From Polaribacter butkevichii (lineage in GTDB: Bacteria > Bacteroidota > Bacteroidia > Flavobacteriales > Flavobacteriaceae), in contig NZ_CP150661.1 of assembly GCF_038024105.1 (NCBI RefSeq), positions 3,067,501-3,131,500 on the forward strand: 64,000 nucleotides of DNA, given 5' to 3'. The notes under the pieces were generated by a model that was given only the letters and a program-made list of their open reading frames with translations, did not search any database and had not been told where the DNA came from. The position numbers were made by a program, and so were the translations under genes. This document shows positions 5,934 through 27,865 of this stretch, in pieces; the first letter of the stretch is position 1; the number at the start of each line of letters is the position of its first letter.

Positions 5934-5979
5934 ACCGTACAAGACAGGACAGAAACAAATTTGATAGATTGTAAAATTG
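5934..5979 (+). promoter_or_regulatory. Putative HTCS operator and promoter, susC unit (site A)
   Basis: ACAGGACA (5944-5951), 20 bp, then TAAAATTG (5972-5979), a TAnnTTTG-like box. A partial second copy, ACCGTACA (5934-5941), lies 10 bp upstream of the first, matching it at 6 of 8 positions. The same arrangement with identical spacing occurs before four other PUL units. The operator sits where a -33 box would be, as expected for an activator-dependent promoter. Confidence 0.7.
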
Positions 5980-6049
5980 TGAGTCTATTGATTTTTGAAA
6001 GCATTTAGGTGTTAATCGAATTAATAAAAATAATTAATAAGCGAATTAT

Positions 6050-9000
6050 ATGTTAAAATTAAAACGAAAAATGAAACAAAATTTAAAAAAGGAAAGATCT
6101 GTTAAAGGATTTTTGCTATTGTTATTGCTGGTCTTTTCCGCTTTCACAAACACTAATTTACACGCTCAGCAGCCGATATCAGGAGTAGTTGCAGATACAG
6201 GAGGTCTTCCTGTTCCAGGCGTTAGTATTATACAAAAAGGAACTACAAATGGTGTGGTAACAGATTTTGATGGTAAATATTCATTAAAATTAATAGCAGG
6301 TGCAAAAACCCTTGTGTTTTCTTATTTAGGTTTTGAAACTCAAGAAGTAGTTGTTGGATCTAAAAGTACTATTGATGTTACTCTTAAGGATTCTGCCGAA
6401 AGTTTAGACGAAATTGTAATTATTGGCTATGCTCCAGTAAGTAGAAAAAAAGTATTAGGTTCTGTTGCAACTGTAAAGTCGGCAGAAGTTGTACAAGCTA
6501 CTCCTGTAGGTGCATTTGATGCTGTACAAGGAAAACTAGCAGGTGTACAAATTTTATCAAATGGTGGCCCTGGTGGAGGTTTCGATATTCGTGTTCGTGG
6601 TGTATCTACATTTAGTTCTGGTGGTACTACTCCATTATATGTTGTGGATGGTCAGCAATTAGATGATATTGATAATATCGATCCAAATGATATAGAGTCT
6701 TTAGAAGTGTTAAAAGATGGAGCTACGGCTGCGGTTTATGGTTCTAAAGCCGCAAATGGGGTTGTGTTAATTACAACTAAATCAGGTAAAAATGGAGAGT
6801 TAAAAGTAGATATTACAAATGTAACAGGTATAAATAGCCTTGTAGGAGATTTACGTTTAGCAAATGCTAATCAAAGAATAGATTATGATAAAGCAAGTGC
6901 AAGTAATACAATAGCGTTGTCTTATAACGAGAGAGATTCTTTAAGTTTAATTAATAGAAATTCTTTTGATGTTCAAAAAATGATTACTAGACCAGCCGTA
7001 AGACAACAAACAAATGTTGCTGTTAGTGGTGGTGGAGATAAATTAAAGTTTTATTGGAATACTGGTTTTCTAAAAGAAAACGGAATTGTTATTAACAGTG
7101 GTTATAAGAGAATTAATACTCTTTTAAAAGGAGATATGACTTTTTCTAAAAAATTAAAAGTTGGTGTTAAAGTAAATTTATCTTTCGAAGAAAAGTTTGG
7201 TTTAAGTGAAGGTAGTGTGTTTACACATTTAGTACAACGTATACCATATTATCCTATTTTTGAGCCAAATGGAGAATATTCTCCAGAAATTTTTGGTCGT
7301 CAAAATCCATTAGCAGAAACCTTAATAGAAAATAAAACAAGAGATTATAGAACTCAGTTTTTTGGTTATGCTCAATTAGAATTGTTTCCTAAATTAACTC
7401 TAAAATCTACTTTTGGTATTAATAATAGGTTAAGAAAGTTTAACGGTTATGTACCTTTTATAGCCATCAACCCTAACTCATCAATACCATTTCCTCAGGT
7501 TAGAGAAACATTTACAAACAGTTATGATATTCAACAAGAAAACTTTTTAAATTATAGTAATAGTTGGGGAGACCATTCTTTAGGTGCTTTTGCAGGTGTA
7601 TCAACACAAAGATATAGTGGAGAAAATTTAGATTTAGAAGCATACCTTCTTTCAGATGCAGTTCAATCTTTAAATAATATAGATGTTGCAAGTTTAAGCG
7701 TTAGAAGAGGTGCCGCAGAAAATAGTAGACATGCTTTATATGGTATGTTTGCTGGTTTTAATTATGATTATAAAAATAGATATTTATTATCAGCAACTTA
7801 TAGACGAGATGGATCTTCTAGATTTGGTGAAAATAATAAATTTGGAGATTTTCCATCACTAAGTGTTGGTTGGAGAGTAAGTAATGAAGAGTTTTTAAAA
7901 GATAACAACCTTATTAGCGATTTAAAGTTAAAAGCTAGTTATGGTGTTGTAGGTAATGAGCGTATTAGTAATTACGATTTTACAGGAGCCTTAACCCCTG
8001 GTTATGTTTATAACAACATAAACGGTGTTGCGCCAACAAGATTAGGAAATCCTGATTTAAAATGGGAAGAAACTACATCTTTAAATTTAGGTTTCGAATT
8101 AGGAATGTTTAAAAATAGATTCAATTTAAATGTAGATTTATGGGAAAAGAAAACAACAGACCTACTTGCTAACCTACCGTTACCAGAAGAATCTGGTTTT
8201 AGTTCAATTAGAACAAATGTTGGGGCTATAAATAATAGAGGTATAGATGTTGCCTTAAGTGGTACAATTATAAAGAAAAAGAATTTTAGTTGGAACAGTA
8301 GTTTTAACATCTCTTATTTAGAAAACGAAGTTGTAAAACTATCTGGTGGTACTCCTTTCTTTTCAGGAAAAGGTAACTCTACTTATATTGAAGAAGGGCA
8401 GCCTCTTGGAAACATTAATGGATGGAAAAATTTAGGTGTTTTTCAATATGATGAATCTAATGCATACACACCAGAAGGAGTAAGATTAAACCCTAATTTT
8501 GATGAAACAGGTTCTTTTGTAAATTATACTTTAAATGGTGCTGAGTATACAGGTACAGTAGCGCAAATGAAAAACGCAGGTAAAGTATTATTAGGTGGAG
8601 ATATTATTTGGGAAGACTTAAATAATGATTTTGATATTACTGCTGATGATAGGCAAACTATAGGAAACGGACTTGCTAATGTATTTGGTGGTTTTACAAA
8701 TAATTTTAAATATAAAAATTTCGGATTTAGTTTCTTATTTGATTATAGTTTTGGTAATGATATTTATAGATACTGGGATGAAGACAGAAATGATTTAAAT
8801 ACCGGTGGAGAAACTCCTGGTCCAGATAGAATAGAAGGAGCATGGAGAAATCAAGGAGATGTTACTGTGTATCCTAGATTAACAAGAAGCCATACTCAAA
8901 ATAGAGAAAGACCAAATAGCTTTTTTGTAACAGAAGGAGATTATATTAAATTAAGATATATTAGACTTAATTATGATGTGCCAAATACTGTAATGAGTAA

Positions 9001-9184
9001 GATTAAAGGTGTTAGTAAAATTTCTTTAAACCTAGCAGTAAATAATGTTTTAACTTGGACAAACTACATAGGGTTTAACCCAGAATTAGGTAGTAGAGGT
9101 AATCCTTTAGCACCTGGTATCGATGAATTAAGATACCCTAATGATCGTGAAATTATTCTTGGTTTAAAAATTCAATTAAAATAA
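6050..9184 (+). CDS. SusC-like TonB-dependent outer-membrane transporter
   Basis: This is the outer-membrane channel importing oligosaccharides with energy from TonB. After a signal peptide (cleavage near Ala39 in LHA-QQ) comes a carboxypeptidase-regulatory-like domain (about 43-118, GVSIIQKGTTNGVVTDFDGKY), then the plug (about 124-245, with GKLAGVQILSNGGPGG, IRVRGVSTF and PLYVVDG) and a long beta-barrel ending LGLKIQLK. The length of 1044 residues is normal for SusC proteins. The next gene, SusD, starts 6 bp downstream, the usual SusCD arrangement. An internal ATG at 6071 is an alternative start. Expression is probably driven from site A. Confidence 0.97.
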   Translation: MLKLKRKMKQNLKKERSVKGFLLLLLLVFSAFTNTNLHAQQPISGVVADTGGLPVPGVSIIQKGTTNGVVTDFDGKYSLKLIAGAKTLVFSYLGFETQEVVVGSKSTIDVTLKDSAESLDEIVIIGYAPVSRKKVLGSVATVKSAEVVQATPVGAFDAVQGKLAGVQILSNGGPGGGFDIRVRGVSTFSSGGTTPLYVVDGQQLDDIDNIDPNDIESLEVLKDGATAAVYGSKAANGVVLITTKSGKNGELKVDITNVTGINSLVGDLRLANANQRIDYDKASASNTIALSYNERDSLSLINRNSFDVQKMITRPAVRQQTNVAVSGGGDKLKFYWNTGFLKENGIVINSGYKRINTLLKGDMTFSKKLKVGVKVNLSFEEKFGLSEGSVFTHLVQRIPYYPIFEPNGEYSPEIFGRQNPLAETLIENKTRDYRTQFFGYAQLELFPKLTLKSTFGINNRLRKFNGYVPFIAINPNSSIPFPQVRETFTNSYDIQQENFLNYSNSWGDHSLGAFAGVSTQRYSGENLDLEAYLLSDAVQSLNNIDVASLSVRRGAAENSRHALYGMFAGFNYDYKNRYLLSATYRRDGSSRFGENNKFGDFPSLSVGWRVSNEEFLKDNNLISDLKLKASYGVVGNERISNYDFTGALTPGYVYNNINGVAPTRLGNPDLKWEETTSLNLGFELGMFKNRFNLNVDLWEKKTTDLLANLPLPEESGFSSIRTNVGAINNRGIDVALSGTIIKKKNFSWNSSFNISYLENEVVKLSGGTPFFSGKGNSTYIEEGQPLGNINGWKNLGVFQYDESNAYTPEGVRLNPNFDETGSFVNYTLNGAEYTGTVAQMKNAGKVLLGGDIIWEDLNNDFDITADDRQTIGNGLANVFGGFTNNFKYKNFGFSFLFDYSFGNDIYRYWDEDRNDLNTGGETPGPDRIEGAWRNQGDVTVYPRLTRSHTQNRERPNSFFVTEGDYIKLRYIRLNYDVPNTVMSKIKGVSKISLNLAVNNVLTWTNYIGFNPELGSRGNPLAPGIDELRYPNDREIILGLKIQLK

Positions 9185-9190
9185 AAAAAA

Positions 9191-10774
9191 ATGATAAAAT
9201 TTAGAAAAATAAAGATATCAACTTTAATATTGTCTTTGTTGCTGGGAGCAGTCTCTTGTGATAGCGTATTAGATGAACAACCTATTAGTGAGATAGGTAC
9301 AGAAAATTTTTGGAATAGTAATGCAGATGCAGAGGCAGGAGTTGCAGCTATTTACGATGCGTTTCAATCTACTTACAGTGAAAAATATTTTTACTGGGGA
9401 GAATTTAGATCAGATAATTTTGTTGCTGGTGGAAACCCAAATAATGATAATATAGAAATTGTTACGCAAAGTTTAACCGAAGATAATGGAACTTTAAAAT
9501 GGAATTTGTTTTATCAAATTATAAATAGAGCCAATAGTGCCATTAAAAATATACCAACAATATCTGGTTATGATAAAAATTTATTGGCAGAAGCTTATGC
9601 TTTAAGAGCGTATGTTTATTTTGATGCTGTTCGTGTTTGGGGGGCTGTGCCATTGTTTGTAGAGCCAACTAAAAGTATTGATGATGCATTTAAGCCTAAA
9701 ACGGATGGAGATACAATTTTAAACGATGTAGTACTTGCAGATTTAAAGGAAGCAGAAAGATTAATGGAGGCTTCAAATAGAGATTTTAGATTTTCTAGAG
9801 CAAGTATTTTTTGCTTAAAAGCAGAAATCAATATGTACCTTCAAAACTATACAGAAGCAAGAAAAGCTTTATATGATATGATTGCTGTAGGAGGGCATGA
9901 TTTAGTAAACACACCAGATGATTGGATTGATTTATTTTACAACAACCCATCTACAAATAGTAACCTAGGTGGTAGAGGTAAAATACAAGAAGGAGACGAG
10001 TTAATATTCTCAATACGTTACAACGCCAGTGAAGATAGAGATAACCCAGGTGTTACTAGAGCTAATAGATCTGGTATTATGTCTTTGTTTTTTGCGGGGG
10101 TTCCTTTATATTCAATATCACCTGTATTAGAAAGAAAATGGCAAGACAAATTTCCTATAGACTCTGCTGGTTGGGTAGATAAATATCCTAATGTTAAACC
10201 CTTTATTGAAAGACAAGTAGAGTATTTAGATGAAAATGGAGAAGTTAAAGATTCTATTGCTCCAGTTTACGGAGATTGGCGTTATTTTGCATGTAGAGAA
10301 GGTGGTTACCAATCTTTTGGATCTAGAGCTATAGGAGAAGCACGTATGTCTAAATGGCAAGAAACAAATTACGATAGAAATAATGATGATACAGATATTG
10401 TAATTTATCGTTATGCAGGTATGTTATTGTTATTAGCAGAAGCAGAAAATCAATTAGATAACCAAACAGTTGCACTAGATTTGGTAAATCAAGTTCGTAG
10501 AGCTAGAGTATTGCCAGAGGTTACTGAAGCAGAATTTGGAGATACAAAAGAAGCTAGAGAAAACTATATACTAGATGAAAGACAATTAGAACTTTTAGGA
10601 GAAGCTAAAAGATGGTGGGATTTAAGAAGAACAAAGAAAGCAATAGAAGTTTTAAATCCAATTTTAGATACCATACCAGGAGCAACTCAATTAAATGAAC
10701 AAAGATTATTATTTCCTATTCATATAGATCATTTAACTGAAAACCCTAATTTAACACAAACACTAGGATATTAA
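9191..10774 (+). CDS. SusD/RagB-family surface glycan-binding lipoprotein
   Basis: The lipid-anchored lid of the SusC channel captures glycan at the cell surface. A signal peptide ends in the lipobox GAVSC (Cys23), followed by SVLDEQP, a typical SusD opening. TPR-like helices (AEAYALRAYVYFDAVRVWG, with the YALRAY and FDAVR motifs common to the family) and a C-terminal RagB/SusD part with ERQLELLGEAKRWWDLRRT confirm the assignment. The length of 527 residues is normal. Cotranscribed with susC and with the fasciclin-type lipoprotein 15 bp downstream. Confidence 0.97.
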   Translation: MIKFRKIKISTLILSLLLGAVSCDSVLDEQPISEIGTENFWNSNADAEAGVAAIYDAFQSTYSEKYFYWGEFRSDNFVAGGNPNNDNIEIVTQSLTEDNGTLKWNLFYQIINRANSAIKNIPTISGYDKNLLAEAYALRAYVYFDAVRVWGAVPLFVEPTKSIDDAFKPKTDGDTILNDVVLADLKEAERLMEASNRDFRFSRASIFCLKAEINMYLQNYTEARKALYDMIAVGGHDLVNTPDDWIDLFYNNPSTNSNLGGRGKIQEGDELIFSIRYNASEDRDNPGVTRANRSGIMSLFFAGVPLYSISPVLERKWQDKFPIDSAGWVDKYPNVKPFIERQVEYLDENGEVKDSIAPVYGDWRYFACREGGYQSFGSRAIGEARMSKWQETNYDRNNDDTDIVIYRYAGMLLLLAEAENQLDNQTVALDLVNQVRRARVLPEVTEAEFGDTKEARENYILDERQLELLGEAKRWWDLRRTKKAIEVLNPILDTIPGATQLNEQRLLFPIHIDHLTENPNLTQTLGY

Positions 10775-10789
10775 TCTAAAAGATAAAAA

Positions 10790-11536: not shown

Positions 11537-11558
11537 AAAAAGTATATTTAATAATATA

Positions 11559-11597: not shown

Positions 11598-11603
11598 TTT
11601 TAA

Positions 11604-11649
11604 ACCTCATAATACAGGACACCTTTAAAGTTGTTAAAGAATACCTTTA
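11604..11649 (+). promoter_or_regulatory. Putative HTCS operator and promoter, first sulfatase (site B)
   Basis: ACAGGACA (11614-11621), 20 bp, then TACCTTTA (11642-11649). The upstream half-copy (11604-11611) is weak, matching at 4 of 8. The site lies directly after the susC operon terminator, giving the sulfatase gene its own copy of the control element. Confidence 0.66.
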
Positions 11650-11694
11650 TAGGATTAATAATTTTAAGTGATACATCTCTTTTAAATAGTAAAA

Positions 11695-13620
11695 ATGATG
11701 AAAATTAAATTTTTAATAATTGTTTTATTAGTCTCTTTTAGTTTAACTTCTTGCAAACCGAAAGCACAAGAAAGACCAAATGTACTTTGGATTACTTGTG
11801 AAGATATAAGTCCGTATATAGGCAGTTATGGTTTTGAGCAAGCACTTACCCCTAATTTAGATAAGCTTGCAGAAAAAGGAATTAGATTTACAAATGCGTA
11901 TTCTAACGCACCTGTTTGCGGAGTTGCACGTACAACCTTATTAACCGGTATGTATGCACCCACAACAGGTACACATAATTTTAGAACCAATACACAGTTA
12001 CCTATAGATATCCCTGCGTATCCTAAGATATTAAGAGAGGCTGGTTATTATTGTACAAATAACTATAAAAAAGATTATAATTCTAGTTATGAAACAGATA
12101 GAAGTTTATGGGATGTTTCTAGTAAAAAAGCACACTATAAAACTAGAAAAGAGGGGCAGCCTTTTTTTGCTGTTTTTAATCTTATTGAAACCCATGAAAG
12201 CCAACTAGCAACAGAAAAAATTAAAAAATATGTGGCAGATGGAGATATTCCTAAAAAACCTAGAATTAACCCTGCAGATATAGAGTTACCACCATATCAC
12301 CCAGATGTGCCAGAAATTAGAGAAGACTGGGCTAGATTACATGATTTAATTACTTTAATGGACAAAAAAGTAGGCAACCTTTTAAAAGAATTAAAAGATA
12401 ATAATTTAGAAGATAACACTATTGTGTTTTTTTGTTCTGACCACGGAGGTATGTTGTCTAGATCTAAGCGATTTTTATATAATGTTGGTACTCAGGTGCC
12501 TGTTATTGCTTATTTTCCTGAAAAATGGAAGCATTTAGCGTCTTATAAACCAGGTAGTGTAGAGGATGGTTTGGTTAGTTTTGTAGATTTTCCTAAAACC
12601 TTTTTATCAATATTAGATTGCCCAGTTCCTCAAAAAATGCAGGGTAAAATATTTCTAGGAAAACACAAAGAAGAAAAACCAAATTATGTTCACTTTTACA
12701 GAGATCGTATGTCTGAACGTTATGATTTTAATAGAGCAGTTACAGATGGAAGATATTATTTAATTCAAAATTTTGTACCACATAGACCAAGAGGTCGCTC
12801 TACTAGATATGGGTATACAGTGCAACAAAACTGGAGAGCAAATGAAGAAAGTTATCAAAACGGAACCTCTAATGCCATTCAATCGCAATTTTATCAACCT
12901 AAAAAAATAGTAGAATTATTCGATACTAAGACAGATCCTTGGCATGTGAATAGTATTGCTGATAAAGAAAAAAATGCAACAAAATTAAACGAATTATCTA
13001 AAGAACTAGATCGATGGATGCTAGAAGTAAAAGATATTGGTTTAATTCCAGAACCTATGTTTTATGATTTGGTAGGAGACGGTAAAAAGTACGCTACTAT
13101 TTATGAATATGCACAAAGTACAGATTATAAAATTGAAAGAATTTTGCCCATAGCTAAATTAGCCGCAAAAGGAAAAATAGAAAATAAAACAGATTATTTA
13201 AGTTTTATAAACGACCAAAATCCAATAATTAGATATTGGGGATTTTATGGTATTTTTAGAATTGCTCAAAATGATAAAGAACTTCAAAAAATATTAATTA
13301 AGAGTATCAAACAAGAAGAAATACCAGTTAATAGACTTATCGCAGCGCAAGCATTAGCACTATCTGGAGATGATAAATTAGCCTTTGAATATTTAGATAA
13401 CGAAACTAAAAACGCAAGAGATGGTTACGTGTTTTTATTTGGCTTAAATGCTTTACAATACTCACATACAGATAAATATTTAACAAAAAAAGATTGGTTG
13501 GCTTTTAAAAAACAACAATTTAATACCGATGATAAAATAGACAGATTTGGTAAAGAGTATAGCAAACGTATTATTAATGATGCTTTAAATCTTTGGCCAG
13601 AGAGGAGAATTGTAGATTAA
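11695..13620 (+). CDS. S1-family sulfatase lipoprotein with unusual active-site motif
   Basis: The N terminus carries a lipoprotein signal (LTSC, Cys20), placing the enzyme in the periplasm or outer membrane. The alkaline-phosphatase-type sulfatase core includes metal-site residues in ITCEDISPY and SDHGGML and a nucleophile region NAPVCGVARTTLLTG. Cys75 would be converted to formylglycine, but the motif is C-G-V-A-R, not the usual C-x-[P/A]-S-R. The last 150 or so residues form helical HEAT-like repeats (NRLIAAQALALSGDDKLAF), as in some long Bacteroidota sulfatases. It probably removes sulfate from the PUL glycan. Its single-gene unit is preceded by operator B. Confidence 0.88.
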   Translation: MMKIKFLIIVLLVSFSLTSCKPKAQERPNVLWITCEDISPYIGSYGFEQALTPNLDKLAEKGIRFTNAYSNAPVCGVARTTLLTGMYAPTTGTHNFRTNTQLPIDIPAYPKILREAGYYCTNNYKKDYNSSYETDRSLWDVSSKKAHYKTRKEGQPFFAVFNLIETHESQLATEKIKKYVADGDIPKKPRINPADIELPPYHPDVPEIREDWARLHDLITLMDKKVGNLLKELKDNNLEDNTIVFFCSDHGGMLSRSKRFLYNVGTQVPVIAYFPEKWKHLASYKPGSVEDGLVSFVDFPKTFLSILDCPVPQKMQGKIFLGKHKEEKPNYVHFYRDRMSERYDFNRAVTDGRYYLIQNFVPHRPRGRSTRYGYTVQQNWRANEESYQNGTSNAIQSQFYQPKKIVELFDTKTDPWHVNSIADKEKNATKLNELSKELDRWMLEVKDIGLIPEPMFYDLVGDGKKYATIYEYAQSTDYKIERILPIAKLAAKGKIENKTDYLSFINDQNPIIRYWGFYGIFRIAQNDKELQKILIKSIKQEEIPVNRLIAAQALALSGDDKLAFEYLDNETKNARDGYVFLFGLNALQYSHTDKYLTKKDWLAFKKQQFNTDDKIDRFGKEYSKRIINDALNLWPERRIVD

Positions 13621-13689: not shown

Positions 13690-13735
13690 ACAAGGCAAAG
13701 CAGGACAGACCACAACGAATGTTTATTTAATATTG
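13690..13735 (+). promoter_or_regulatory. Putative HTCS operator and promoter, GH2-sulfatase-GH78 unit (site C)
   Basis: GCAGGACA (13700-13707), 20 bp, then TAATATTG (13728-13735). A second copy, ACAAGGCA (13690-13697), lies 10 bp upstream, matching at 5 of 8 positions. It drives the three-gene unit that starts at 13780. Confidence 0.68.
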
Positions 13736-16377: not shown

Positions 16378-16387
16378 ATAAAAGCAA

Positions 16388-17854: not shown

Positions 17855-17863
17855 ATTAACATA

Positions 17864-20614
17864 ATGAATAAATTGTTTTTAACATTTTTAGTAGCTTTTG
17901 TTACATTATCAGGGGCTGCACAAATAACAGTAACAAATCTACAGTTAGAATATCGTAACAATCCAGAAGGTGTTGATGTTGTAAAACCAAGGTTTTTTTG
18001 GAAATTAGAATCAAACCAAGCAGCGCAATATCAAACAGCTTATCAGCTTTTAGTGGCAACATCAAAAGAAAATTTAGATAAAAATATAGGTGATGCGTAC
18101 GATTCTAAAAAAGTAAAAAGTTCGCAAACTACGCAGGTAGTATACAAAGGTAAAAACTTAACTGCAACCTCTCAGTATTACTGGAAAGTAAAGGTTTGGG
18201 ATAAAAATAATAAAGCTTCTAATTGGAGTGCGTCTGCTTATTTTTCTACTGGATTATATCAAAAAGAAGATTGGAAAGGAGCGCAATGGATTGCATGGAA
18301 AAATCAAGAGGAATGGGCAGAAAAGTGGTGGAGTAATAAAGAGATAGAATCTAAAGCATTGCAATTTCAGTTGCCAAGTTACTTTGGGTCTAGTATGACG
18401 TTGTGGGAGCGTTATCAATTTCATCATGATAGCCCGTATGATGCAGCTCCTTTGTTACGAAAAGATTTTAAAGTAACTAAAAAAGTAAAAACAGCAAAAG
18501 CATACATTAGTGGTATTGGGTATTACGAGTTGTTTATCAACGGAAAAAGAATTGGAAATCAAGTTTTAGATCCGGGATGGACAGATTACAGAAAAACAAT
18601 TTTATATGCTACTCACGATATTACTAACGAGGTACAAGACGGAGCAAACCTTGCTGGCGTTATGTTGGGGCGTGGTAATTATGGGCAATTAGCTTATGAT
18701 CATTGGGGGTTTTATAAAAAGGATGGTTACATAGGTCAGCCTAAATTAATGTGCCGAATAAGAGTAGAATATGAAGATGGTACCGAAGAAAATGTAATTA
18801 GCGATTTAAGCTGGAAAATTACAGGAGGACCCATTATTTATGATGGTCCACACATGGGAGAAATTTACGACGCAACAAAAGAAATTCCGAATTGGAATTT
18901 AGCCAACTTTGATGCTTCTAGTTGGGAAACAGTAAAACCATCTCCACATCCAGGAGGTGAGTTGGTGTCGCAAATGTGTCAACCTATTCGTGTTACAGAA
19001 ACGTTTAAACCTATAGAAATTAAGTCTAAAGGAAACTATGGGCAATGGATTGATACCGGTACAAATAGTTCTGGTTGGATAAAGCTTCGTCTTAAAAACT
19101 TAAAAAAAGGACAGCAAGTTTTAATTTTTTATGGAGAACATGAAGACCCAACTTCTAGTGGTCAACCAGGTCGTTGGCAACAAATGGGATACATCGGTAA
19201 AGGAGAAAAAGAAGAATTTGCAGAGTGTCGTTTTTCATATAAAGGATATCGTTACGTACAGGTTAAAGGGTACAAAACCAAAATAACTAAAGATGACGTT
19301 GAGGTAAAAATTGTACATTCTGATGTGCCAAGAGTTGGGCATTTTGAATCTTCGGATAAAGTAGTAAACGCGGTTGATGATATTTGTAGAAAATCTTTAA
19401 TTTTTAATTTACATAGTATTGCTACCGACTGCCCAAACAGAGAAAAAAACGGATGGTTAGGAGACGTAGTTACAGGTATGGAATTTGGTATGGCAAACTA
19501 TGATTTGGCAGCATTAATGACCAAGTTTACTCGTGATATTTGGGATACTCAAAATGAAGCAGGAGGAATGGCAGCCATTGCACCAGCAAATGATTATAGA
19601 ACAGGTAGGTCTTCTTTATGGTCTTCGGCAGGTGTGCATGTGCCTTGGTATATGTATACATATTATGGAGATACTAGGTTGTTTGATGAATATTGGCAAA
19701 AAATGATGTTGTGGGTAGATTATTCTTGGAAACATAACAATTTGGCAGAAAAAGACGGCATGTTTACAGAAATGTATAACGACTGGGTAACCCCTTATGA
19801 TAGAACTTATAAAGGAGGAGGTAAACCAGGAGGAAATGAGGTAATAGCTTCTATGAATTTTTATTTAGTTTTAAAACGTTTGGCTATTATGGCAGACAAA
19901 CTAGATAAGAAAAAAGATAAAAAACGTTTAGAACAACAAGTAAAACGTATCCATGCAGGAATTCAGAAATGGGCTTTTGATGAAGAAAAAGTAGAATACG
20001 CAGGGTTAAAACCGTTTAATGAATTTTTACCTGTAGTTAATATTCTTGCGCTTAATTATGGTATTGTTCCAGAAAAATATAAAGCACAACTAGAAAAAAA
20101 GGTGGTAGACAATATTGTAAAAGATAAAAATTACCACGTTTGGGGTGGTGTGTTTACAGTACACTCTGCTTACGAGTATTTACCAAAAAATGGTTATGCA
20201 GATATGATGCATAAAGTTGTTGTAGATGAAGAATGGCCCTCTTTTGGTTGGTTAATTAAAGAAGGCGCAACTACATTGCCAGAAGGCTATAATTTTGCAT
20301 CGTCAGACATCCATCATTTTATGGGAGCTGTAGATAATTTCTTTTATCGCCATATGGTTGGTATAAATTTCGATGAAAATAACCCAGGGTTTAAGCAAAT
20401 TATTTTAAAACCAAACTTTATTAAAGCAATGGATTTTGCAAAGGCAAGCTACAATTCTATTCACGGAGAAATTAAAGCTGAATGGAAAAAAACAGCTAAT
20501 GGTACCTATGAATATTCAGGAACTATTCCTGTAAATTGCGAAGCAGAAGTTGTGCTTCCAAACAAAACTGTACATGTAAAATCGGGTAGTTTTAAGTTTA
20601 CGGTAGCTATTTAA
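17864..20614 (+). CDS. GH78 alpha-L-rhamnosidase
   Basis: A signal peptide (to about GAA-Q20) is followed by the GH78 opening LQLEYRNNPEGVDVVKPRFF, a fibronectin-like domain, two beta-sandwich domains (LDPGWTDYRKTI, GRGNYG) and an alpha/alpha barrel. The GH78 signature is present as ATDCPNREKNGWLGD, with Asp522, Glu527 and Asp534 at the positions of the usual catalytic cluster. The C-terminal sandwich has NNPGFKQIILKP, a family hallmark. It releases terminal alpha-L-rhamnose, probably in the periplasm. It is last in the GH2-sulfatase-GH78 unit and starts 9 bp after the sulfatase stop. Confidence 0.95.
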   Translation: MNKLFLTFLVAFVTLSGAAQITVTNLQLEYRNNPEGVDVVKPRFFWKLESNQAAQYQTAYQLLVATSKENLDKNIGDAYDSKKVKSSQTTQVVYKGKNLTATSQYYWKVKVWDKNNKASNWSASAYFSTGLYQKEDWKGAQWIAWKNQEEWAEKWWSNKEIESKALQFQLPSYFGSSMTLWERYQFHHDSPYDAAPLLRKDFKVTKKVKTAKAYISGIGYYELFINGKRIGNQVLDPGWTDYRKTILYATHDITNEVQDGANLAGVMLGRGNYGQLAYDHWGFYKKDGYIGQPKLMCRIRVEYEDGTEENVISDLSWKITGGPIIYDGPHMGEIYDATKEIPNWNLANFDASSWETVKPSPHPGGELVSQMCQPIRVTETFKPIEIKSKGNYGQWIDTGTNSSGWIKLRLKNLKKGQQVLIFYGEHEDPTSSGQPGRWQQMGYIGKGEKEEFAECRFSYKGYRYVQVKGYKTKITKDDVEVKIVHSDVPRVGHFESSDKVVNAVDDICRKSLIFNLHSIATDCPNREKNGWLGDVVTGMEFGMANYDLAALMTKFTRDIWDTQNEAGGMAAIAPANDYRTGRSSLWSSAGVHVPWYMYTYYGDTRLFDEYWQKMMLWVDYSWKHNNLAEKDGMFTEMYNDWVTPYDRTYKGGGKPGGNEVIASMNFYLVLKRLAIMADKLDKKKDKKRLEQQVKRIHAGIQKWAFDEEKVEYAGLKPFNEFLPVVNILALNYGIVPEKYKAQLEKKVVDNIVKDKNYHVWGGVFTVHSAYEYLPKNGYADMMHKVVVDEEWPSFGWLIKEGATTLPEGYNFASSDIHHFMGAVDNFFYRHMVGINFDENNPGFKQIILKPNFIKAMDFAKASYNSIHGEIKAEWKKTANGTYEYSGTIPVNCEAEVVLPNKTVHVKSGSFKFTVAI

Positions 20615-20649: not shown

Positions 20650-20695
20650 TTCCGATAGAACAGGACAGGGAATATTGTTTTGTAATATAGTTTTA
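20650..20695 (+). promoter_or_regulatory. Putative HTCS operator and promoter, lyase-like gene (site D)
   Basis: ACAGGACA (20660-20667), 20 bp, then TAGTTTTA (20688-20695). The upstream half-copy (20650-20657) is poor, matching at 3 of 8. Confidence 0.66.
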
Positions 20696-20786
20696 CTCTT
20701 CTTACTTTTTAGCGTGTTTGTGTATAATACATACTACAAATACGCTAAAAAAGTATAGTGTATATTATGTTCTAAACAATTTTAAA

Positions 20787-23700
20787 ATGATAAAAAAGGT
20801 ACTTTTATTTTCAGTAATATTTTTTTTTACAATTTCTTCGAGTGCACAGGTAGAAATCTTTAAGCAAGATTTTAATGAATCTACAGTACGTGCAGACTAT
20901 ACTAGTGATAACCCGAGTTCTAGTCAGTTTACAAAAATTAGCAACAGTTCTTCAGTTTTATCAAGTATAACAAACGGAGCTTTACGTTTTACTAAAACAG
21001 GAAGTTCTTCTGCTTATTTTTATAGAAATATTAACACAGATCTTACACAAGAACCAACTTTAATGAAAATGAAGTTTGATTTTGCTGTTGCAGGTCAAAA
21101 TGAAGACCATCCAGATGATAGAAGGGCTATGTCTTTTTATTTTGGTCCTAGTTTTGCAAGAGTTGGTACTTCAATAGCAGATGTTCATAGTAGATTTGGG
21201 TTAGGGATTAGTGAAACTACAGGAAGTTTTTTTTTACAAGTATTAGATAATGGTAGTGCCAAATCAGTAGATTTTTCTGGCAAACAAACCATTACCTTTA
21301 TGGTTAATAATAGTGGTAGTACACAAACATATTTAGCACCAGATAATTCTACAGAAAGTATTGCAGATGATACTTGGGAAATTTGGGTAGGTACAACAAA
21401 AGTATTTAATGATATTGCTTCTAGAAATAAAGATTTAAGTTTAGGTAGTTTTAAATTACAATACAATTCTTTTTTACCAAAAGGAATTTTAGATTTTGAT
21501 AATTTTGAATTTATAGATTTATTAAATCAAGAAATTGTTAAAACACAATCATTAGAACATCCGCACATTTTAGTAAGTAATGCTGATAAACAAAAAATAT
21601 TAGACAATATTGCTTATTATGATTGGGCTAGTAGTATGTTTAATCAACTAATGGAAAGACAATCTTTGTACGAAGAAATTCATGTTTCCGACCCTAAGTT
21701 TATATTAAAATCGATACCAGGTATACCAGGTGATAGAAGTACACATAGAACTATTTTAAACAGAGCAGTAGAATGTGGTATTATTTATTATTTAACAGGT
21801 AATGAAGGTTATGCGCAATTATCTGCAGATATTTTACATCATTATGTAAAAATGATTAGTGTACAAGATCCTTTAAACTTTAAGTTTTATTCAAGTAGTT
21901 TTAATCATTTAATTCAAACTAGAGAGCATTTTCCACGTGTAGGAATTGCTTATGATTTTATTCATTCTTTTATTTCTAAAGAAACTACTACTGTTTTTGA
22001 TTATGAAACAGAAACACGTATTCCTTTTAATTTTGATACATCTCAAAAAGCCTTTGAGGTAATGGCAGAAAATGTTTTAAAAGTTGGGGGTACAAACTCA
22101 AACCATCCTGTTTTAGAATTAACGGGTGCTTTATACAATGTAATGTGTATGGAAGATGATGCTACGAGAGAGCGTTATTTTCAAAGACTTTGGAATGGAG
22201 ATTCTAATCAAAACGGAATTACATGGATGTTAAACCACTTTACCAAAGAAGAAAGTATGTGGCCAGAAGCTGTAGGGTATAGTAAATTTACACACGCTAT
22301 TGTTTTGAAAGTTATGAATGTTTTAGACAGATATAAACCAGAACTAAAAATAATAGAGAATAATTTAAACCTATTAGACGGTATTTTTATTTTTGATAAT
22401 TTTTATTATCCAAATGGGTCTACTATTGCCTACGGAGATATAGGTAGAACGTTTACAGGTGATAACCATGTTTATAGAAACGTACTTGCTATGGGAGATC
22501 GTTTAGGGTTGGCAGCATATAAAGAAAAAGCTGCAATTACTCTTAAAAAACGATACAATGATGAAGGTGGTTACAAACCTGTTATAGAAACTCAATCTTT
22601 AGAATGGAATAACCCACTGCAATTATTATGGGGTGTAAATATAGATGATGCAGTAGTTAGTACAGGTACACCTTTATATAATACAGTTACTGCAAAATAT
22701 GCAGGTATGGTTATGCAACGTAATTTTGTAGAGGAAAATAATGTAGATAATGGTTTAATGTATTATACCGGTGGTGGTAGTTATGTGCATGCACATGCTA
22801 CAGGTTTAGATATGGAACTTTATGGAGCAGGTTATATTATGGGACCAGATTATGGTAATGATGATTATGGTAGCGATATTCATGAAACTTATGCCGTTTC
22901 TCATGCAGCACACAATACAGTTATTGTAAATGGAGCTACTAAAAGAGGTGTTTCTAGTTCTGGTACTTGGTTAAATATTGTAGATCCTATTGTTTTAGAA
23001 GCAAGTGAGCCAGAGGCATATGCGAATCCAATTTCAGATAACTTTGGGTTTTCAACTCAATTTTTAGAAGATCGTAATAATAATTTAGATCAACAACGTA
23101 CAAATAGTATTGTTAGAACAAGTGCTACAACTGGTTATTATGTAGATGTATTTAGATCTATTTCTAAAGATGTAAATAACTATCACGATTACCTTTTTCA
23201 TGGTTTGGGAGATGTAATGCAAATGAAAACCGGAGAAATTGCACTTAATTTAACAGCTACACCAGAAAGATATAATAATGATTTAGGTGATAGTAGAAAA
23301 CAACCGGGATGGAGATGGTATACAGATGCAAAAACATCTCAATTAACAGCCGATGCTATTTCAGCGAGATTCGATTTACAATTTGATAACAAATATTTAC
23401 ACGTAAATGTTCCTGGAGGAATCGAAAAGGAGTACTCATCCGCTTTAGCGCCTGCAACTAAATATGTTAGAAATGGATATTCTAATAAAAAGACGCAAAT
23501 GTTTATGATGCGTAAATATGGTGAAGCATGGAATAAACCCTTTGTAACAATATATGAACCTTCTAGTAGTGCCATAAGTAGTGTTAAGTCTACGTCTAAT
23601 ATTATTAATAATAATAAAGTTGTTGGTGTAAAAGTTATATCTGAAGTTAATGGACAAAAAATAACAGATTTTATTCTAACGAATGATAGCGAAGAAGCAA

Positions 23701-24152
23701 TTCAATTAAGCGATTTAAATATAGCCTTTACAGGTAGATTTGGAATTGTACGTACCATAGAAAAAGCGACAAATACAGATGTTTCATTATATATTGGTAA
23801 AGGAAGTCAGCTTACTTTTTTAGATGAAACAATTACTGGTGACGCATCTGGAAAAGCATTTTTAGAATACACATTAGATTATACATTATCAACCTTAGAT
23901 TTTAACAATTTAGAGAAACGTGTTACTGTATTTCCTAATCCGTCGGAAGGATTATTTGAAATAAATTTACCTTTAAATGTTAAAAATATAAAATTACAAG
24001 TTTATAATATTCAAGGGCAATTAGTAGTTTCTAAAAAACAACCTGTAAACGGAGGTAATGCTAAATTAGATATTAGAAATCAAGCAAAAGGAATCTATTT
24101 TGTTAAAGTAAATTTAGAGACTCCTGTTTTTATTAAAGTAATTAAAAAGTAA
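20787..24152 (+). CDS. Heparinase II/III-like polysaccharide lyase, T9SS-secreted
   Basis: The frame opens at 20718, but the signal peptide (MIKKVLLFSVIFF to SSAQ) begins at ATG 20787, so I use that start (1121 aa). Regions in order: a beta-sandwich-like domain (about 20-240), a helical toroid (about 255-590, RAVECGIIYYLTG, NHPVLELTGALYN, MWPEAVGY), a heparinase II/III-type beta-sandwich (about 610-960) with the histidine motif YVHAHATG (His668, His670) and ELYGAGYIMGPDYG, and a type A T9SS sorting domain (about 1045-1121, FPNPSEGLFEI to GIYFVKV). A lyase cleaving uronate-containing backbone at the cell surface is likely. The exact PL family is not decidable by eye; ulvan-type lyases are among the relatives to test. 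Confidence 0.8.
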   Translation: MIKKVLLFSVIFFFTISSSAQVEIFKQDFNESTVRADYTSDNPSSSQFTKISNSSSVLSSITNGALRFTKTGSSSAYFYRNINTDLTQEPTLMKMKFDFAVAGQNEDHPDDRRAMSFYFGPSFARVGTSIADVHSRFGLGISETTGSFFLQVLDNGSAKSVDFSGKQTITFMVNNSGSTQTYLAPDNSTESIADDTWEIWVGTTKVFNDIASRNKDLSLGSFKLQYNSFLPKGILDFDNFEFIDLLNQEIVKTQSLEHPHILVSNADKQKILDNIAYYDWASSMFNQLMERQSLYEEIHVSDPKFILKSIPGIPGDRSTHRTILNRAVECGIIYYLTGNEGYAQLSADILHHYVKMISVQDPLNFKFYSSSFNHLIQTREHFPRVGIAYDFIHSFISKETTTVFDYETETRIPFNFDTSQKAFEVMAENVLKVGGTNSNHPVLELTGALYNVMCMEDDATRERYFQRLWNGDSNQNGITWMLNHFTKEESMWPEAVGYSKFTHAIVLKVMNVLDRYKPELKIIENNLNLLDGIFIFDNFYYPNGSTIAYGDIGRTFTGDNHVYRNVLAMGDRLGLAAYKEKAAITLKKRYNDEGGYKPVIETQSLEWNNPLQLLWGVNIDDAVVSTGTPLYNTVTAKYAGMVMQRNFVEENNVDNGLMYYTGGGSYVHAHATGLDMELYGAGYIMGPDYGNDDYGSDIHETYAVSHAAHNTVIVNGATKRGVSSSGTWLNIVDPIVLEASEPEAYANPISDNFGFSTQFLEDRNNNLDQQRTNSIVRTSATTGYYVDVFRSISKDVNNYHDYLFHGLGDVMQMKTGEIALNLTATPERYNNDLGDSRKQPGWRWYTDAKTSQLTADAISARFDLQFDNKYLHVNVPGGIEKEYSSALAPATKYVRNGYSNKKTQMFMMRKYGEAWNKPFVTIYEPSSSAISSVKSTSNIINNNKVVGVKVISEVNGQKITDFILTNDSEEAIQLSDLNIAFTGRFGIVRTIEKATNTDVSLYIGKGSQLTFLDETITGDASGKAFLEYTLDYTLSTLDFNNLEKRVTVFPNPSEGLFEINLPLNVKNIKLQVYNIQGQLVVSKKQPVNGGNAKLDIRNQAKGIYFVKVNLETPVFIKVIKK

Positions 24153-24182
24153 TTTATAAATATATTTTTATATAATAAATTC

Positions 24183-24218
24183 ATCCCCCCATGGCATAGC
24201 TTTTGGGGGGATTTTTTT
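24183..24218 (+). terminator. Rho-independent terminator after the lyase gene
   Basis: ATCCCCCC and GGGGGGAT form a strong stem, followed by seven or more T. It separates the lyase unit from the GH106 gene. Confidence 0.92.
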
Positions 24219-24293
24219 AGATTAAAAGGGATGTTAATTCATGAAATGAAATAAATTATTTATTTTTAGTAAATTATTTATAAATTATTTTAA

Positions 24294-27200
24294 ATGAAAA
24301 ATCTCTTTTTTTTATTATACTTAATACTATTTATACAATGTAAATCTACCGAAAATGATTTAACGGAAGATTTTAAAACGTTAAGTGATGGTTTTGTTTC
24401 TCCAGTTAAACAATATCGACCGGAAACATGGTTTCATATCAACGGAAACAATATTAGTAAAGTAGGCCTTACTAAAGATTTAGAAGCAATAAAATCTGCA
24501 GGATTGCAAGGAATTCAGCTCTTTAATAAAAGCGGAAGACCATATCCTGAGGTGAATCAAATAAAAATTTTATCTCCCGAATGGGAAGATATGATTCGTC
24601 ATGCAGCAGAAGAATGTAAACGTCTTGGTTTAAAATTTACAATGCAAAATTGTCCTGGTTGGTCTATGACAGGAGGTCCTTGGGTACCTGTAGAAGAAGC
24701 ACAGCGCGAAGTGGTTGAATCTGTGTATCATGTATCCGGAGGGAAAAAATATAATGAAATTCTAAAATTAGATTCATTATATAAAACATCAGATTATAAT
24801 TATAAAGATATTCAAGTTTTAGCTTTTCCTACTCCAGAAGGAGATCATTTAGACCCTTTTAATCCATCAGAAGTTGAAAGTAATAATCAAGTTATTCCTT
24901 GGGTAGATATTTTTAACCCCAACTCAAAACTTATAGTTACTCGTAAAAGTACTCAATTAGATAAACCTTTAAAAGAGTATAGAGCTCAGGGAATTTCTAA
25001 AATAAACAATGAGGATACTTGGGTTAAAACTAAGTTTGATACAGTGGTAACACTGCGTTCTATTATTTTTCCGCAATCTAGACATATGATTATGGGAACA
25101 GAATATCCTAAGATAGATGTTGCTGTTAAAGTTGAAGCCTTAATTAATGATGAATTTAGAGAAATAACAACTGTTAACGTACCCGATGCGAATTGGAATG
25201 ATAGAAGAAAGTACTTAACCTTAGCAATTCCAGAAACTACCGCTAAGGTGTTTAAATTTACTTTTAAAGGAAATCATACTATTGCTCCAGAAACTATACG
25301 TTTAAGCGCTAAACCTCAAAACCATAATTTTGAAGCCAAAGCAGCCAAAGTATTAAGGCGTTTGGAAAAAGATGTACACTATAAATATGCAGAAAATACT
25401 ATTGTAAAAAGGAATTCTATTATTAATCTAACTGATAAAATGACTTCTGATGGAAAACTAACTTGGAGTATTCCAAAAGGAAATTGGACGGTAGTTCGTT
25501 TTGGTCATATCAATATGCGATTAACCAATAAACCTGCAGTTCCAGAAGCAACGGGTTGGGAGTCTAGCAAATTAGATAAAAAAGCCATAGAAAATCATCT
25601 TAAAAAAGGGATGATAGGAAATTTAATTAAAGATGGAGGTCCAATAGGAAACGGAAAATTACAAGGCTTGTTAATAGATAGTTGGGAAAGTCATGTACCC
25701 ACTTGGACCATGAATTCCGATGATATGTTTAAGGAATTTAAACACAGAAGAGGTTATGATTTGGTAAAATATCTGCCCGCAACTATGGGGTATATTGTAG
25801 ATAGCCCAGAAGTAACAACTAAATTTTTACGAGATCTACGTCAAACAATGGATGATTTATTTATCGAAAATTTCTTTGAACATTTTGCAACTATCGCTCA
25901 TGAAATGGGAGCAGAGGTATATACCGAAGGTGCCGGAGGAGAAGTTTTACCTATAGACCCTATGCGTTATTATGGAGTAAGTGATATTCCAATGACAGAG
26001 TTTTGGTACCCTAAAGCACCGTCTAATCAAAACGAATTTGCCAAACCTATTCTATCAGCAGCTTCAGCTACGCACTTATACAATAAGCCTGTTTTAGCAG
26101 CAGAAGCTTGTACGCAAGTTGGGGTAAAATGGAATGAACACCCATTTAGTGTAAAGTATTTAATAGATTATAATTTTACAAAAGGAGTAAATCATTTGGT
26201 TTTTCATACGTTTTCTCATACACCTCAAACCAACGTCTATCCCGGGTCTAGTTTTGGAGGTAATATAGGGTTTCCTTTTGTTAGAGCGCAAACTTGGTGG
26301 AAATACATGCCAGATTGGATTGATTATTTAACTCGTAATCAATATGTATTACAGCAAGGAGAATTTGCAGCTGATGTACTTTGGTATTATGGCGATCATT
26401 TTGAGCGTCCGCCTTTTGATTTAAATGATTTTCCAAAAGGCTATAAATATGATTATTTAAATGAAGAAATATTACAGCAAAAATTAACTGTTAAAAACGA
26501 GAAAATTAATGTTAAAGATGCTGGAGATTATCGTGTTATTCTTTTAAGAGATTCTAAAAATATGCTATTGTCTACAGCCAAGAAACTAAAAGAGTTAGTA
26601 TTAAATGGAGCTGTAATTGTGGGGGATAAACCTACAGATTCCCCTAGTTTAATGGATGATGAAAATGATGTACAAACGCTATTAGCAATTTCTAATGAAT
26701 TATGGGGAAATGCTAAAAGTGGAGTAAAAAAAGTAGGGAAAGGAAAAGTATATTGGGGTACATCTATAGAAGAAGTGTTAAAAAATGAAACTATTATGCC
26801 AGATGTAATAGTTCCACAAAATGCCGATGTACAATGGATTCATCGTAAAACCGATGCTGCTGATATTTATTTTGTGTCTACTAAGAGTGAAAAACCGACA
26901 GATGTATCAATAAGCTTTAGAGTTAAAAATGCTTATCCTCAATTTTGGGATGCTTTTACAGGAAAACAATATGATGCCACTGTTTGGAACAAAACAAAAG
27001 ATAGAATTAATGTGGCTGTATCTTTTGATGCTAGCGGAAGTGCAATTGTTGTTTTTCCTAAAGGAAATAAAACGCCGTATGCAACAAAAGTGGAATTTGA
27101 AGGGGAACCGGTATTAAGTTCAGAAATTGGTTGGTATCGTACCCATAAAAATGATGATTTAGTTCGTGTTAAAATAGAAAACAAGAAGATAAAAGCATCT

Positions 27201-27737
27201 ACATCTGGAGTTTACAAAGTTTATAATACAGAAGGAGTCTCATCAATAAAAGTTGATGTAAAAGAAATTTCTATTCAGAATAATTGGAAGGTGGCTTTTG
27301 AACCAGGATGGGATACTCCAGAGTCGGTTAAGGTTTCTCAATTAAAATCACTTACAGAGTTTGATAACAAAGCCATACAACACTATTCAGGAACAGTTAC
27401 TTATACTAAAGAAATAGAAATTGATGATCTTGAAAAAAATACGATTCTAGATTTAGGGCACGTAGCCAATATAGCTGAATTGTGGTGCAACGGCAAAAAA
27501 GTAGGTACACGTTGGGCTCCACCATATAAATTTGAGATAGGTAATGTACTTAAAAAGGGAAAAAATAAAATTGAAATAAAAGTAACCAACACGTGGCGAA
27601 ATCAATTAATTTATGATAATACCCGTGCCAAAGGCAAAAAGAAAACATGGACAACAAGCCCTCCTAAAAAAGAAGAAACTGAATTAGATATTTCTGGTTT
27701 AGTAGGGCCTGTTAAATATATAGCGTTTTCTTATTAA
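24294..27737 (+). CDS. GH106-like alpha-L-rhamnosidase lipoprotein
   Basis: A short signal ends in IQC (Cys16), a weak lipobox. The family opening is clear: PETWFHINGNNISKVGLTKD, then GLQGIQLFNKSG and KFTMQNCPGWSMTGGPWV. The barrel continues with IDSWESHVPTWTMN, EVYTEGAGGE and AAEACTQVGVKW, acidic positions expected to hold the catalytic residues. A C-terminal jelly roll (about 1040-1140, LGHVANIAELWCNGKKVGTRWAPPY) is typical. GH106 enzymes are inverting alpha-L-rhamnosidases. The gene lies after a strong terminator and lacks the CAGGACA element of the other PUL units; TATTTTTA at 24261-24268 is its only promoter-like box. It may be controlled separately or by readthrough. Confidence 0.87.
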   Translation: MKNLFFLLYLILFIQCKSTENDLTEDFKTLSDGFVSPVKQYRPETWFHINGNNISKVGLTKDLEAIKSAGLQGIQLFNKSGRPYPEVNQIKILSPEWEDMIRHAAEECKRLGLKFTMQNCPGWSMTGGPWVPVEEAQREVVESVYHVSGGKKYNEILKLDSLYKTSDYNYKDIQVLAFPTPEGDHLDPFNPSEVESNNQVIPWVDIFNPNSKLIVTRKSTQLDKPLKEYRAQGISKINNEDTWVKTKFDTVVTLRSIIFPQSRHMIMGTEYPKIDVAVKVEALINDEFREITTVNVPDANWNDRRKYLTLAIPETTAKVFKFTFKGNHTIAPETIRLSAKPQNHNFEAKAAKVLRRLEKDVHYKYAENTIVKRNSIINLTDKMTSDGKLTWSIPKGNWTVVRFGHINMRLTNKPAVPEATGWESSKLDKKAIENHLKKGMIGNLIKDGGPIGNGKLQGLLIDSWESHVPTWTMNSDDMFKEFKHRRGYDLVKYLPATMGYIVDSPEVTTKFLRDLRQTMDDLFIENFFEHFATIAHEMGAEVYTEGAGGEVLPIDPMRYYGVSDIPMTEFWYPKAPSNQNEFAKPILSAASATHLYNKPVLAAEACTQVGVKWNEHPFSVKYLIDYNFTKGVNHLVFHTFSHTPQTNVYPGSSFGGNIGFPFVRAQTWWKYMPDWIDYLTRNQYVLQQGEFAADVLWYYGDHFERPPFDLNDFPKGYKYDYLNEEILQQKLTVKNEKINVKDAGDYRVILLRDSKNMLLSTAKKLKELVLNGAVIVGDKPTDSPSLMDDENDVQTLLAISNELWGNAKSGVKKVGKGKVYWGTSIEEVLKNETIMPDVIVPQNADVQWIHRKTDAADIYFVSTKSEKPTDVSISFRVKNAYPQFWDAFTGKQYDATVWNKTKDRINVAVSFDASGSAIVVFPKGNKTPYATKVEFEGEPVLSSEIGWYRTHKNDDLVRVKIENKKIKASTSGVYKVYNTEGVSSIKVDVKEISIQNNWKVAFEPGWDTPESVKVSQLKSLTEFDNKAIQHYSGTVTYTKEIEIDDLEKNTILDLGHVANIAELWCNGKKVGTRWAPPYKFEIGNVLKKGKNKIEIKVTNTWRNQLIYDNTRAKGKKKTWTTSPPKKEETELDISGLVGPVKYIAFSY

Positions 27738-27819
27738 AATTGTAAAAAAAAGAGAGAGTTAATTATTTGATGCATAGTGCTTAATATTTAAAGGTGATTA
27801 GTTTTATTTAAAAATTAAC

Positions 27820-27865
27820 ACAGGGCAAAACAGGACAAGAATTATAATGTTGAGGTTTAGCTTTG
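27820..27865 (+). promoter_or_regulatory. Putative HTCS operator and promoter, last PUL gene (site E)
   Basis: ACAGGACA (27830-27837), 20 bp, then TAGCTTTG (27858-27865), a perfect TAnnTTTG box. The upstream copy ACAGGGCA (27820-27827) matches at 7 of 8, making this the clearest 10-bp-spaced direct repeat of the five sites. Confidence 0.72.

What the first reader, a model, noticed from the sequence alone, without database searches (positions are those of the whole stretch)
5934..27865. A shared control element marks five PUL transcription units: CAGGACA, exactly 20 bp, TAnn[T/A]TT[G/A]
Seen directly: [A/G]CAGGACA begins at 5944, 11614, 13700, 20660 and 27830, and a Bacteroidota-type -7 box begins exactly 28 bases later each time (TAAAATTG, TACCTTTA, TAATATTG, TAGTTTTA, TAGCTTTG). 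All five lie in the non-coding DNA before susC, sulfatase 1, the GH2 unit, the lyase and the last secreted protein. The intervening 20 bp are not conserved, so the fixed distance is functional, not inherited by duplication. The element sits where a -33 box would be. Known: HTCS proteins with AraC-type DNA-binding domains activate PUL promoters. Inference: this is the HTCS operator of the gene at 1614. I saw CAGGACA elsewhere only inside genes (minus strand at 39304 and 45801).
Basis: partly seen in the sequence, partly recalled or inferred. Interest (0 to 1): 0.82.

Follow-up and report, generated by a model that had tools for sequence, protein, structure and literature searches.

The report
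Tandem rhamnose-regulon operator, GntR not HTCS

Summary
Observation confirmed: five RCAGGACA-N20-TAnnWTTR sites as stated (shuffle mean 0.007). The genome has ten exact matches, all intergenic. The element is larger than described: a tandem repeat CAGKAYA-GTA-CAGGAYA-S with a 10-bp step, the last copy 20 bp before the -7 box; a few loci carry 3 to 6 copies. The HTCS attribution is not supported. Over 149 family genomes the motif follows the GntR/LacI-type regulator encoded at 422-1477: GntR-only genomes mean 5.0 (n=18), neither 0.99 (n=120), HTCS-only 1 (n=1). GntR is the only gene family found in 11 of 12 motif-region genomes. Of 77 named loci chosen by GntR, 72 carry the operator. The HTCS has its own candidate operator at 5730-5784, a 21-22-bp direct repeat of the published HTCS type. 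Targets include rhaEW, the rhamnose symporter RhaT, susC, a sulfatase, rhamnosidases and ulvan lyases, one of them (PL28) far from both clusters. Best reading: a rhamnose-responsive GntR activator sitting on the -33 region. Binding, effector and sign of action are inferred.

The parts
422..1477 (+). GntR-type regulator: N-terminal winged helix (PF00392) plus LacI-like sugar-binding domain (PF13377); proposed to bind the CAGGAYA operators. Start more likely the ATG at 431, where the aligned relatives begin.
   Evidence: Pfam; alignment; fold and PDB matches to LacI-type repressors; co-occurrence
1614..5669 (+). HTCS (Reg_prop, Y_Y_Y, HisKA, HATPase, receiver, AraC-type HTH); not the likely binder of the CAGGACA element
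   Evidence: Pfam
5730..5784 (+). candidate HTCS operator and promoter: 21-22-bp direct repeat, -7 box TATTTTTG at 5777-5784; the only match in the window with a -7 box at the thresholds used
5806..5898 (+). unannotated hydrophobic 30-aa ORF; similar ORFs follow other HTCS genes
5935..5952 (+). operator 1 (CCGTACA-AGA-CAGGACA-G)
5972..5979 (+). -7 box TAAAATTG of operator 1, before susC
6050..9184 (+). SusC-type TonB-dependent receptor
9191..10774 (+). SusD-type protein
11605..11622 (+). operator 2 (CCTCATA-ATA-CAGGACA-C), -7 box TACCTTTA 11642-11649
11695..13620 (+). sulfatase downstream of operator 2
13691..13708 (+). operator 3 (CAAGGCA-AAG-CAGGACA-G), -7 box TAATATTG 13728-13735
13780..20614 (+). 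GH2 - sulfatase - alpha-L-rhamnosidase unit (13780-16377, 16388-17854, 17864-20614)
20651..20668 (+). operator 4 (TCCGATA-GAA-CAGGACA-G), -7 box TAGTTTTA 20688-20695
20718..24152 (+). secreted protein related to Uly1040 (PDB 9vtk), T9SS tail; true start probably downstream of the TTG at 20718 (inference)
24294..27737 (+). GH106 alpha-L-rhamnosidase, no operator of its own found
27821..27838 (+). operator 5 (CAGGGCA-AAA-CAGGACA-A), -7 box TAGCTTTG 27858-27865
27922..28812 (+). 296-aa protein with T9SS tail

Best explanation
The element is the operator of the GntR/LacI-type regulator encoded at 422-1477 (and its paralogues at about 341-343 kb of the genome), a RhaR-like regulator of L-rhamnose and rhamnose-containing ulvan. 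The operator is a head-to-tail repeat, CAGKAYA-GTA-CAGGAYA-S, one helical turn apart. On the F. johnsoniae numbering (T-12, A-11) the two copies cover about -49 to -43 and -39 to -33, so the protein would sit on the -33 region of a primary-sigma promoter and most likely activates it. Shown by computation: the repeat, its phase to the -7 box, target genes, and co-occurrence with GntR more than with the HTCS. Inferred: that GntR binds it, that rhamnose or a rhamnose intermediate is the effector, and that the action is activation. The HTCS probably acts separately through the 21-22-bp repeat at 5730-5784 in front of the small ORF and susC.
For: Genome counts (own genome included): GntR plus HTCS n=10 mean 9.1, GntR only n=18 mean 5.0 (range 0-12), HTCS only n=1 count 1, neither n=120 mean 0.99; reversed-pattern control means 0.80, 1.44, 1, 0.78; GntR-only against neither p=4e-9; 19 of 20 genomes with at least 5 sites have GntR, 8 of 20 the HTCS. 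GntR is the one family in 11 of 12 motif-region genomes; next rhaM 10, then rhaEW, rhaI and kinase 8 each. Loci chosen by GntR alone: strict pattern in 15 of 30, 18 sites, reversed 0; loci chosen by HTCS: 2 of 16. Named loci chosen by GntR: 72 of 77 with the operator, 103 of 107 hits intergenic, reversed matrix 7 hits. Spacing: 15 own and 63 foreign sites at N20. Of 158 strong intergenic operators, scored without the box, 99 have an exact and 32 a one-mismatch -7 box at N20, against 0.5% and 5% at twelve neighbouring offsets. Arrays of copies end 20 bp before the box. Targets: rhaEW, RhaT, PL28 ulvan lyase, susC.
Against: No binding or expression data. The GntR gene of the window has no operator within about 1.5 kb (L178), and 9 of 30 GntR loci lack one in that range. 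Only 39 of 103 operator hits in the named loci have the strict -7 box at N20; these hits include upstream array copies and a recurrent Flavobacterium rhaT promoter with TTATTTTA there. GntR-family proteins generally bind inverted repeats (PMC5320631). Many characterised GntR sugar regulators are repressors (recalled). Four GntR-positive genomes have 0 to 2 strict matches. The HTCS-only class is a single genome. A regulator encoded elsewhere in these genomes is not excluded.
Confidence: 0.75

Rival explanations
1. One reading: the element is the operator of the HTCS at 1614, bound by its AraC-type domain.
For: The HTCS gene lies directly upstream; a 56%-identical HTCS paralogue lies in the second cluster that shares the element; genomes with both regulators have more sites (mean 9.1 against 5.0).
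Against: 18 genomes with GntR and no close HTCS have a mean of 5.0 sites; the one with HTCS only has 1, as background. HTCS-selected loci rarely have it (2 of 16 strict; 4 of 16 by matrix). The repeat step is 10 bp, not about 21. A separate 21-22-bp repeat with a fixed -7 box follows the HTCS gene in 9 of the 10 loci kept for that motif.
Confidence: 0.07
2. GntR is the binder but acts as a repressor that masks the -33 region and is released by rhamnose.
For: Repression is common for GntR and LacI-type sugar regulators (recalled); the Zobellia alginate GntR regulator is called a repressor in a cited title (reference list).
Against: The copy-to-box distance is strongly fixed at 20 bp, and in the four arrays found extra copies extend upstream with the last copy phased; a repressor would not need this.
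Confidence: 0.2
3. The element is a -33 box read by an alternative sigma factor, and GntR merely shares the pathway.
For: It occupies the -33 region and is phased to the -7 box.
Against: The -7 box is that of the primary sigma factor (PMC6847099). A promoter element would not recur in 10-bp steps upstream, nor track a GntR gene.
Confidence: 0.05

Closest known systems
HTCS operators of Bacteroides thetaiotaomicron (PMC3878776, passages seen)
   Same: direct-repeat DNA sites in glycan loci
   Different: about 21 bp between sites there, 10 bp here; here the site follows a GntR protein. The separate element at 5730 does fit the HTCS type.
RhaR regulators of L-rhamnose (PMC3870299, passages seen)
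   Same: control rhaEW and other rhamnose genes; the DeoR-family RhaR motifs are imperfect direct repeats with a 10-11-bp period
   Different: families named in the passages are LacI, DeoR and AraC; the terms GntR and Flavobacteri have 0 hits in that main text
MocR/PdxR/GabR/TauR regulators (PMC5320631, passages seen)
   Same: GntR-type DNA-binding domain, direct-repeat operators, activators, often divergent from their targets
   Different: they carry an aminotransferase-like domain; this one has a LacI-like sugar-binding domain
Arabinose repressor AraR (PDB 4egy and others)
   Same: GntR DNA-binding domain related in sequence; GntR plus LacI-like architecture is recalled for AraR
   Different: AraR binds a palindrome (recalled); no palindrome here
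FucR BT1272 and ManR BT2103, GntR-family sugar regulators of Bacteroides (PMC3878776, Table 2 passage)
   Same: GntR family, monosaccharide pathways in Bacteroidota
   Different: homology and motif not compared here

Membership tests
HTCS operator | two conserved sites about 21 bp apart in direct repeat | tested here: not met
   10-bp step; no conservation 21 bp upstream of CAGGAYA over 89 sites
HTCS operator | co-occurs with an orthologous HTCS | tested here: not met
   18 GntR-only genomes enriched; the 1 HTCS-only genome at background
HTCS operator | bound by the HTCS AraC domain | not testable with these tools
   needs a binding assay
GntR-family regulator (gene 422-1477) | GntR winged-helix domain | tested here: met
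   PF00392 E=6.1e-12
GntR-family regulator, AraR-like | LacI-type sugar-binding domain | tested here: met
   PF13377 just over its cut-off (27.6 against 26.5 bits); model matches LacI-type repressors
GntR-family regulator, AraR-like | palindromic operator (recalled) | tested here: not met
   consensus is a direct repeat; of 8 GGTACNGTAC in the genome 2 are at operators
MocR subfamily | aminotransferase-like domain | tested here: not met
   only the DNA-binding part matches MocR models and chains
Rhamnose (RhaR) regulon | operator before L-rhamnose catabolic or transport genes | tested here: met
   rhaEW in 31 of 103 hits in named loci; RhaT in Flavobacterium; own genome 343453 before a RhaD_aldol-ADH protein
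Rhamnose (RhaR) regulon | regulator responds to rhamnose | not testable with these tools
   effector not tested

The most novel reading that the evidence does not exclude
A GntR/LacI-type activator that lines up head to tail on 10-bp tandem arrays of 2 to 6 copies, stands in for the -33 promoter element, and joins ulvan depolymerisation, uptake and rhamnose catabolism into one dispersed regulon across Flavobacteriia, with the HTCS as a second, separate input at susC.
Probability: 0.45. Interest if true: 0.7.

Novelty: new variant of a known kind. Interest (0 to 1): 0.55.

Why it matters
PUL regulation in Bacteroidota is usually read through the neighbouring HTCS or SusR gene. Here the shared promoter element points to a less noticed GntR gene and links two gene clusters, rhamnose catabolism and an isolated ulvan lyase in one predicted regulon. 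The consensus is specific enough to suggest ulvan and rhamnose genes in other genomes: in this genome it led to a PL28 ulvan lyase far from either cluster. It would also give a defined example of how a regulator meets the primary promoter of Flavobacteriia, whose -33 element is poorly seen in F. johnsoniae (PMC6847099, passage).

Tried and rejected
Rejected: the palindrome GTACNGTAC seen upstream of the susC and rhaEW sites as the main operator; GGTACNGTAC has 8 matches in the genome against 4 in the control and only two are at operators. Rejected: that CAGGACA against CAGGATA reflects the GntR wing sequence; the nearest named relative carries both forms (the automatic wing extraction in that script returned nothing, so this was judged from the listed sites only). 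Rejected: the one-mismatch site at 46-81 minus; it is not among matches of score 11 or more. Tried without result: a general TTG -33 signal in upstream regions. The AusR paper (PMC7641319) is not held.

Limits of the counts. The HTCS full-length search scored only 4 candidates per genome; the domain search scored up to 31. Five of the 120 'neither' genomes have a weaker GntR match (38-47% identity; mean 1.4 sites). Genome counts are not corrected for relatedness. Of the 77 used, 39 are titled Flavobacterium (36 with the operator) and 38 are others (36 with it); 33 loci share what is probably one orthologous rhaT promoter. The 89 training sites were chosen with a -7 box, and 12 of them come from 10 of the 30 GntR loci rescanned (tally), so that rescan (21 of 30 by matrix, reversed 1) is not independent; the strict-pattern count is. 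For the HTCS motif 12 of 17 gaps were given, 10 were kept after inspection (L105 and L108 dropped). G133 (5 sites, no GntR) stands as an exception; two of its sites are identical copies, and the stretch fetched from it (L290) was not analysed. Of the 11 foreign regions, G011 and G129 were picked at motif sites beside an HTCS, the rest at motif clusters; this favours the HTCS, not GntR.
Full report
Observation. The five sites exist exactly as described and are far beyond chance for the full pattern (mean 0.007 in 300 shuffles). In the whole genome (4.08 Mb, one contig) the exact pattern occurs ten times: five in the window and five elsewhere (209823, 306393, 328557, 353975 minus, 1553449 minus). 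All ten are outside ORFs; for nine a facing ORF starts within about 110 bp, and for 209823 the next listed ORF starts about 330 bp downstream. The relaxed form CAGGAYA-N20-TANNTTTR gives 14 matches and none for the reversed pattern.

Surroundings. The window cluster encodes a GntR regulator, an HTCS, SusC/SusD, two sulfatases, a GH2 enzyme, two alpha-L-rhamnosidase-type enzymes and a lyase-like protein; the last matches Uly1040 in the PDB, a name I recall as an ulvan lyase. Four of the five outside exact sites fall in a block at about 150-355 kb with paralogues of the window genes: HTCS 56% identical, GntR 58 and 53%, SusC 46%. That block also holds a bifunctional rhamnulose-phosphate aldolase/dehydrogenase, a rhamnose-isomerase-like protein (below its model's cut-off), an FGGY kinase and rhamnose mutarotase. 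One isolated relaxed site at 893637 precedes a PL28 ulvan lyase (E=3e-90); the isolated site at 1553449 precedes a protein without family match.

Anatomy. Aligning 17 own sites shows a second copy 10 bp upstream that was not used to choose them. With 89 sites (15 own, 74 foreign) the consensus is CAGKAYAGTACAGGAYAS with sharp edges and an unconserved spacer. The distance to the -7 box is 20 bp in 15 own and 63 foreign cases, with secondary peaks at 30 (6 and 19) from the upstream copy and at most 5 at any other value from 10 to 33. In a motif-blind count of 5-mers before TAnnTTTR, CAGGA at offset 27 ranks first in the own regions (15 observed, 0.19 expected) and in relatives (62 against 0.70); in the named loci, dominated by orthologous promoters, it ranks second (31 against 0.48). 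Scanning 1.46 Mb with the operator matrix, without requiring a -7 box, gives 172 hits at score 14 or more, 158 intergenic although 92% of the DNA is coding. Of the 158, 99 have an exact box at N20, 32 one mismatch and 12 two; at twelve neighbouring offsets the rates are 0.5, 5 and 22%. A matrix trained without own-genome sites finds 6 hits in the window, all at the five promoters, and 39 in the second block, 36 intergenic. Eight 20-kb control stretches of the same genome give none at score 15. Two arrays of 3 and two of 4 or more copies in 10-bp steps were found by the pattern used; the longest, in L233, has six copies counted by eye (the last is CAGGATG); in all four the last copy lies 20 bp before a -7 box.

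Which regulator. The close HTCS clade (56% or more identity in the AraC domain, next hit 49%) is in 11 of 149 family genomes. The GntR clade (48% or more) is in 28. Motif counts follow GntR (figures above). The 11 foreign regions fetched at motif sites contain a GntR orthologue in 10 and an HTCS of the clade in 3; the region without GntR is G129, whose GntR gene lies on another contig. GntR is the only family present in 11 of 12 genomes. In the reverse direction, loci chosen only for GntR carry the strict pattern in 15 of 30 and the operator by matrix in 72 of 77 named loci; loci chosen for HTCS carry the strict pattern in 2 of 16. In the named loci the main targets are the neighbouring rhaEW gene (31 of 103 hits) and, in Flavobacterium, a gene whose product begins MESLLGIIFHSI (33 loci); the one tested, from a F. 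johnsoniae strain (L271), is the L-rhamnose/proton symporter RhaT (541 bits, cut-off 468).

The HTCS. The gap after HTCS genes holds a different conserved element: in 10 kept loci a repeat with best self-match at 21 and 22 bp (1.51 and 1.48, 1.21 or less elsewhere), followed in 9 of 10 by a -7 box at one fixed distance. In the window one such element with a box was found (5730-5784). This fits the published HTCS architecture and gives the HTCS a separate target in front of a 30-aa ORF and susC. Among the closest HTCS relatives the GntR operator lies in the gap after the HTCS gene in L208 but not in L104 and L105.

Mechanism. On the F. johnsoniae numbering the two copies cover about -49 to -43 and -39 to -33 (positions from PMC6847099, passages; arithmetic mine). 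Fixed phase, one face of the helix, occupation of the -33 region and upstream arrays favour activation by contact with polymerase. The model of GntR (mean pLDDT 85.8) has a winged helix and a LacI-type domain, consistent with sugar sensing. Rhamnose as effector is inferred from the regulon.

Literature. Passages, not whole papers, were seen from PMC3878776, PMC3870299, PMC11253607, PMC12125979, PMC5320631, PMC7366714, PMC6847099, PMC5698469 and PMC12323373. Ten full-text searches showed, by title and start of abstract, no paper on a GntR-type rhamnose or ulvan regulator in Flavobacteriia; one search showed 10 of 27 papers and 15 of 40, some listed papers that mention GntR (such as PMC7953866 and PMC9296495) were not opened, and most subscription papers are outside that library.

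Verdict. Real, conserved and informative element; wrong regulator named; a new variant of a known kind of sugar regulon.

Noticed in passing
window 5806-5898: Unannotated, hydrophobic 30-aa ORF directly after the candidate HTCS promoter. By eye, similar 28-32-aa ORFs follow the HTCS gene in 8 of 16 other gaps examined. Could be a small membrane partner of HTCS or SusC.
   Followed up: partly
window 5730-5784; L031 minus strand near genome position 157672; L158, L159, L168, L170: Candidate HTCS promoter element (21-22-bp direct repeat plus phased -7 box); G071 has further copies before other genes.
   Followed up: partly
own genome 893637 (L289): Isolated PL28 ulvan lyase under the same operator, about 540 kb from the second block and over 1.8 Mb from the window.
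   Followed up: yes
L032-L034, genome 172319, 173534, 187878, 196654, 213259: A CAGGATG[GC] subclass of the operator, one copy before the more distant GntR paralogue (187931); perhaps that paralogue's own operator.
   Followed up: no
L233 about 2818-2875 (Maribacter MAG): Six tandem copies in 10-bp steps before a SusC-type gene.
   Followed up: partly
own genome 1553449 (L042): Operator before a 297-aa lipoprotein-like protein without Pfam match, similar to the PL28 protein only in the signal region.
   Followed up: partly
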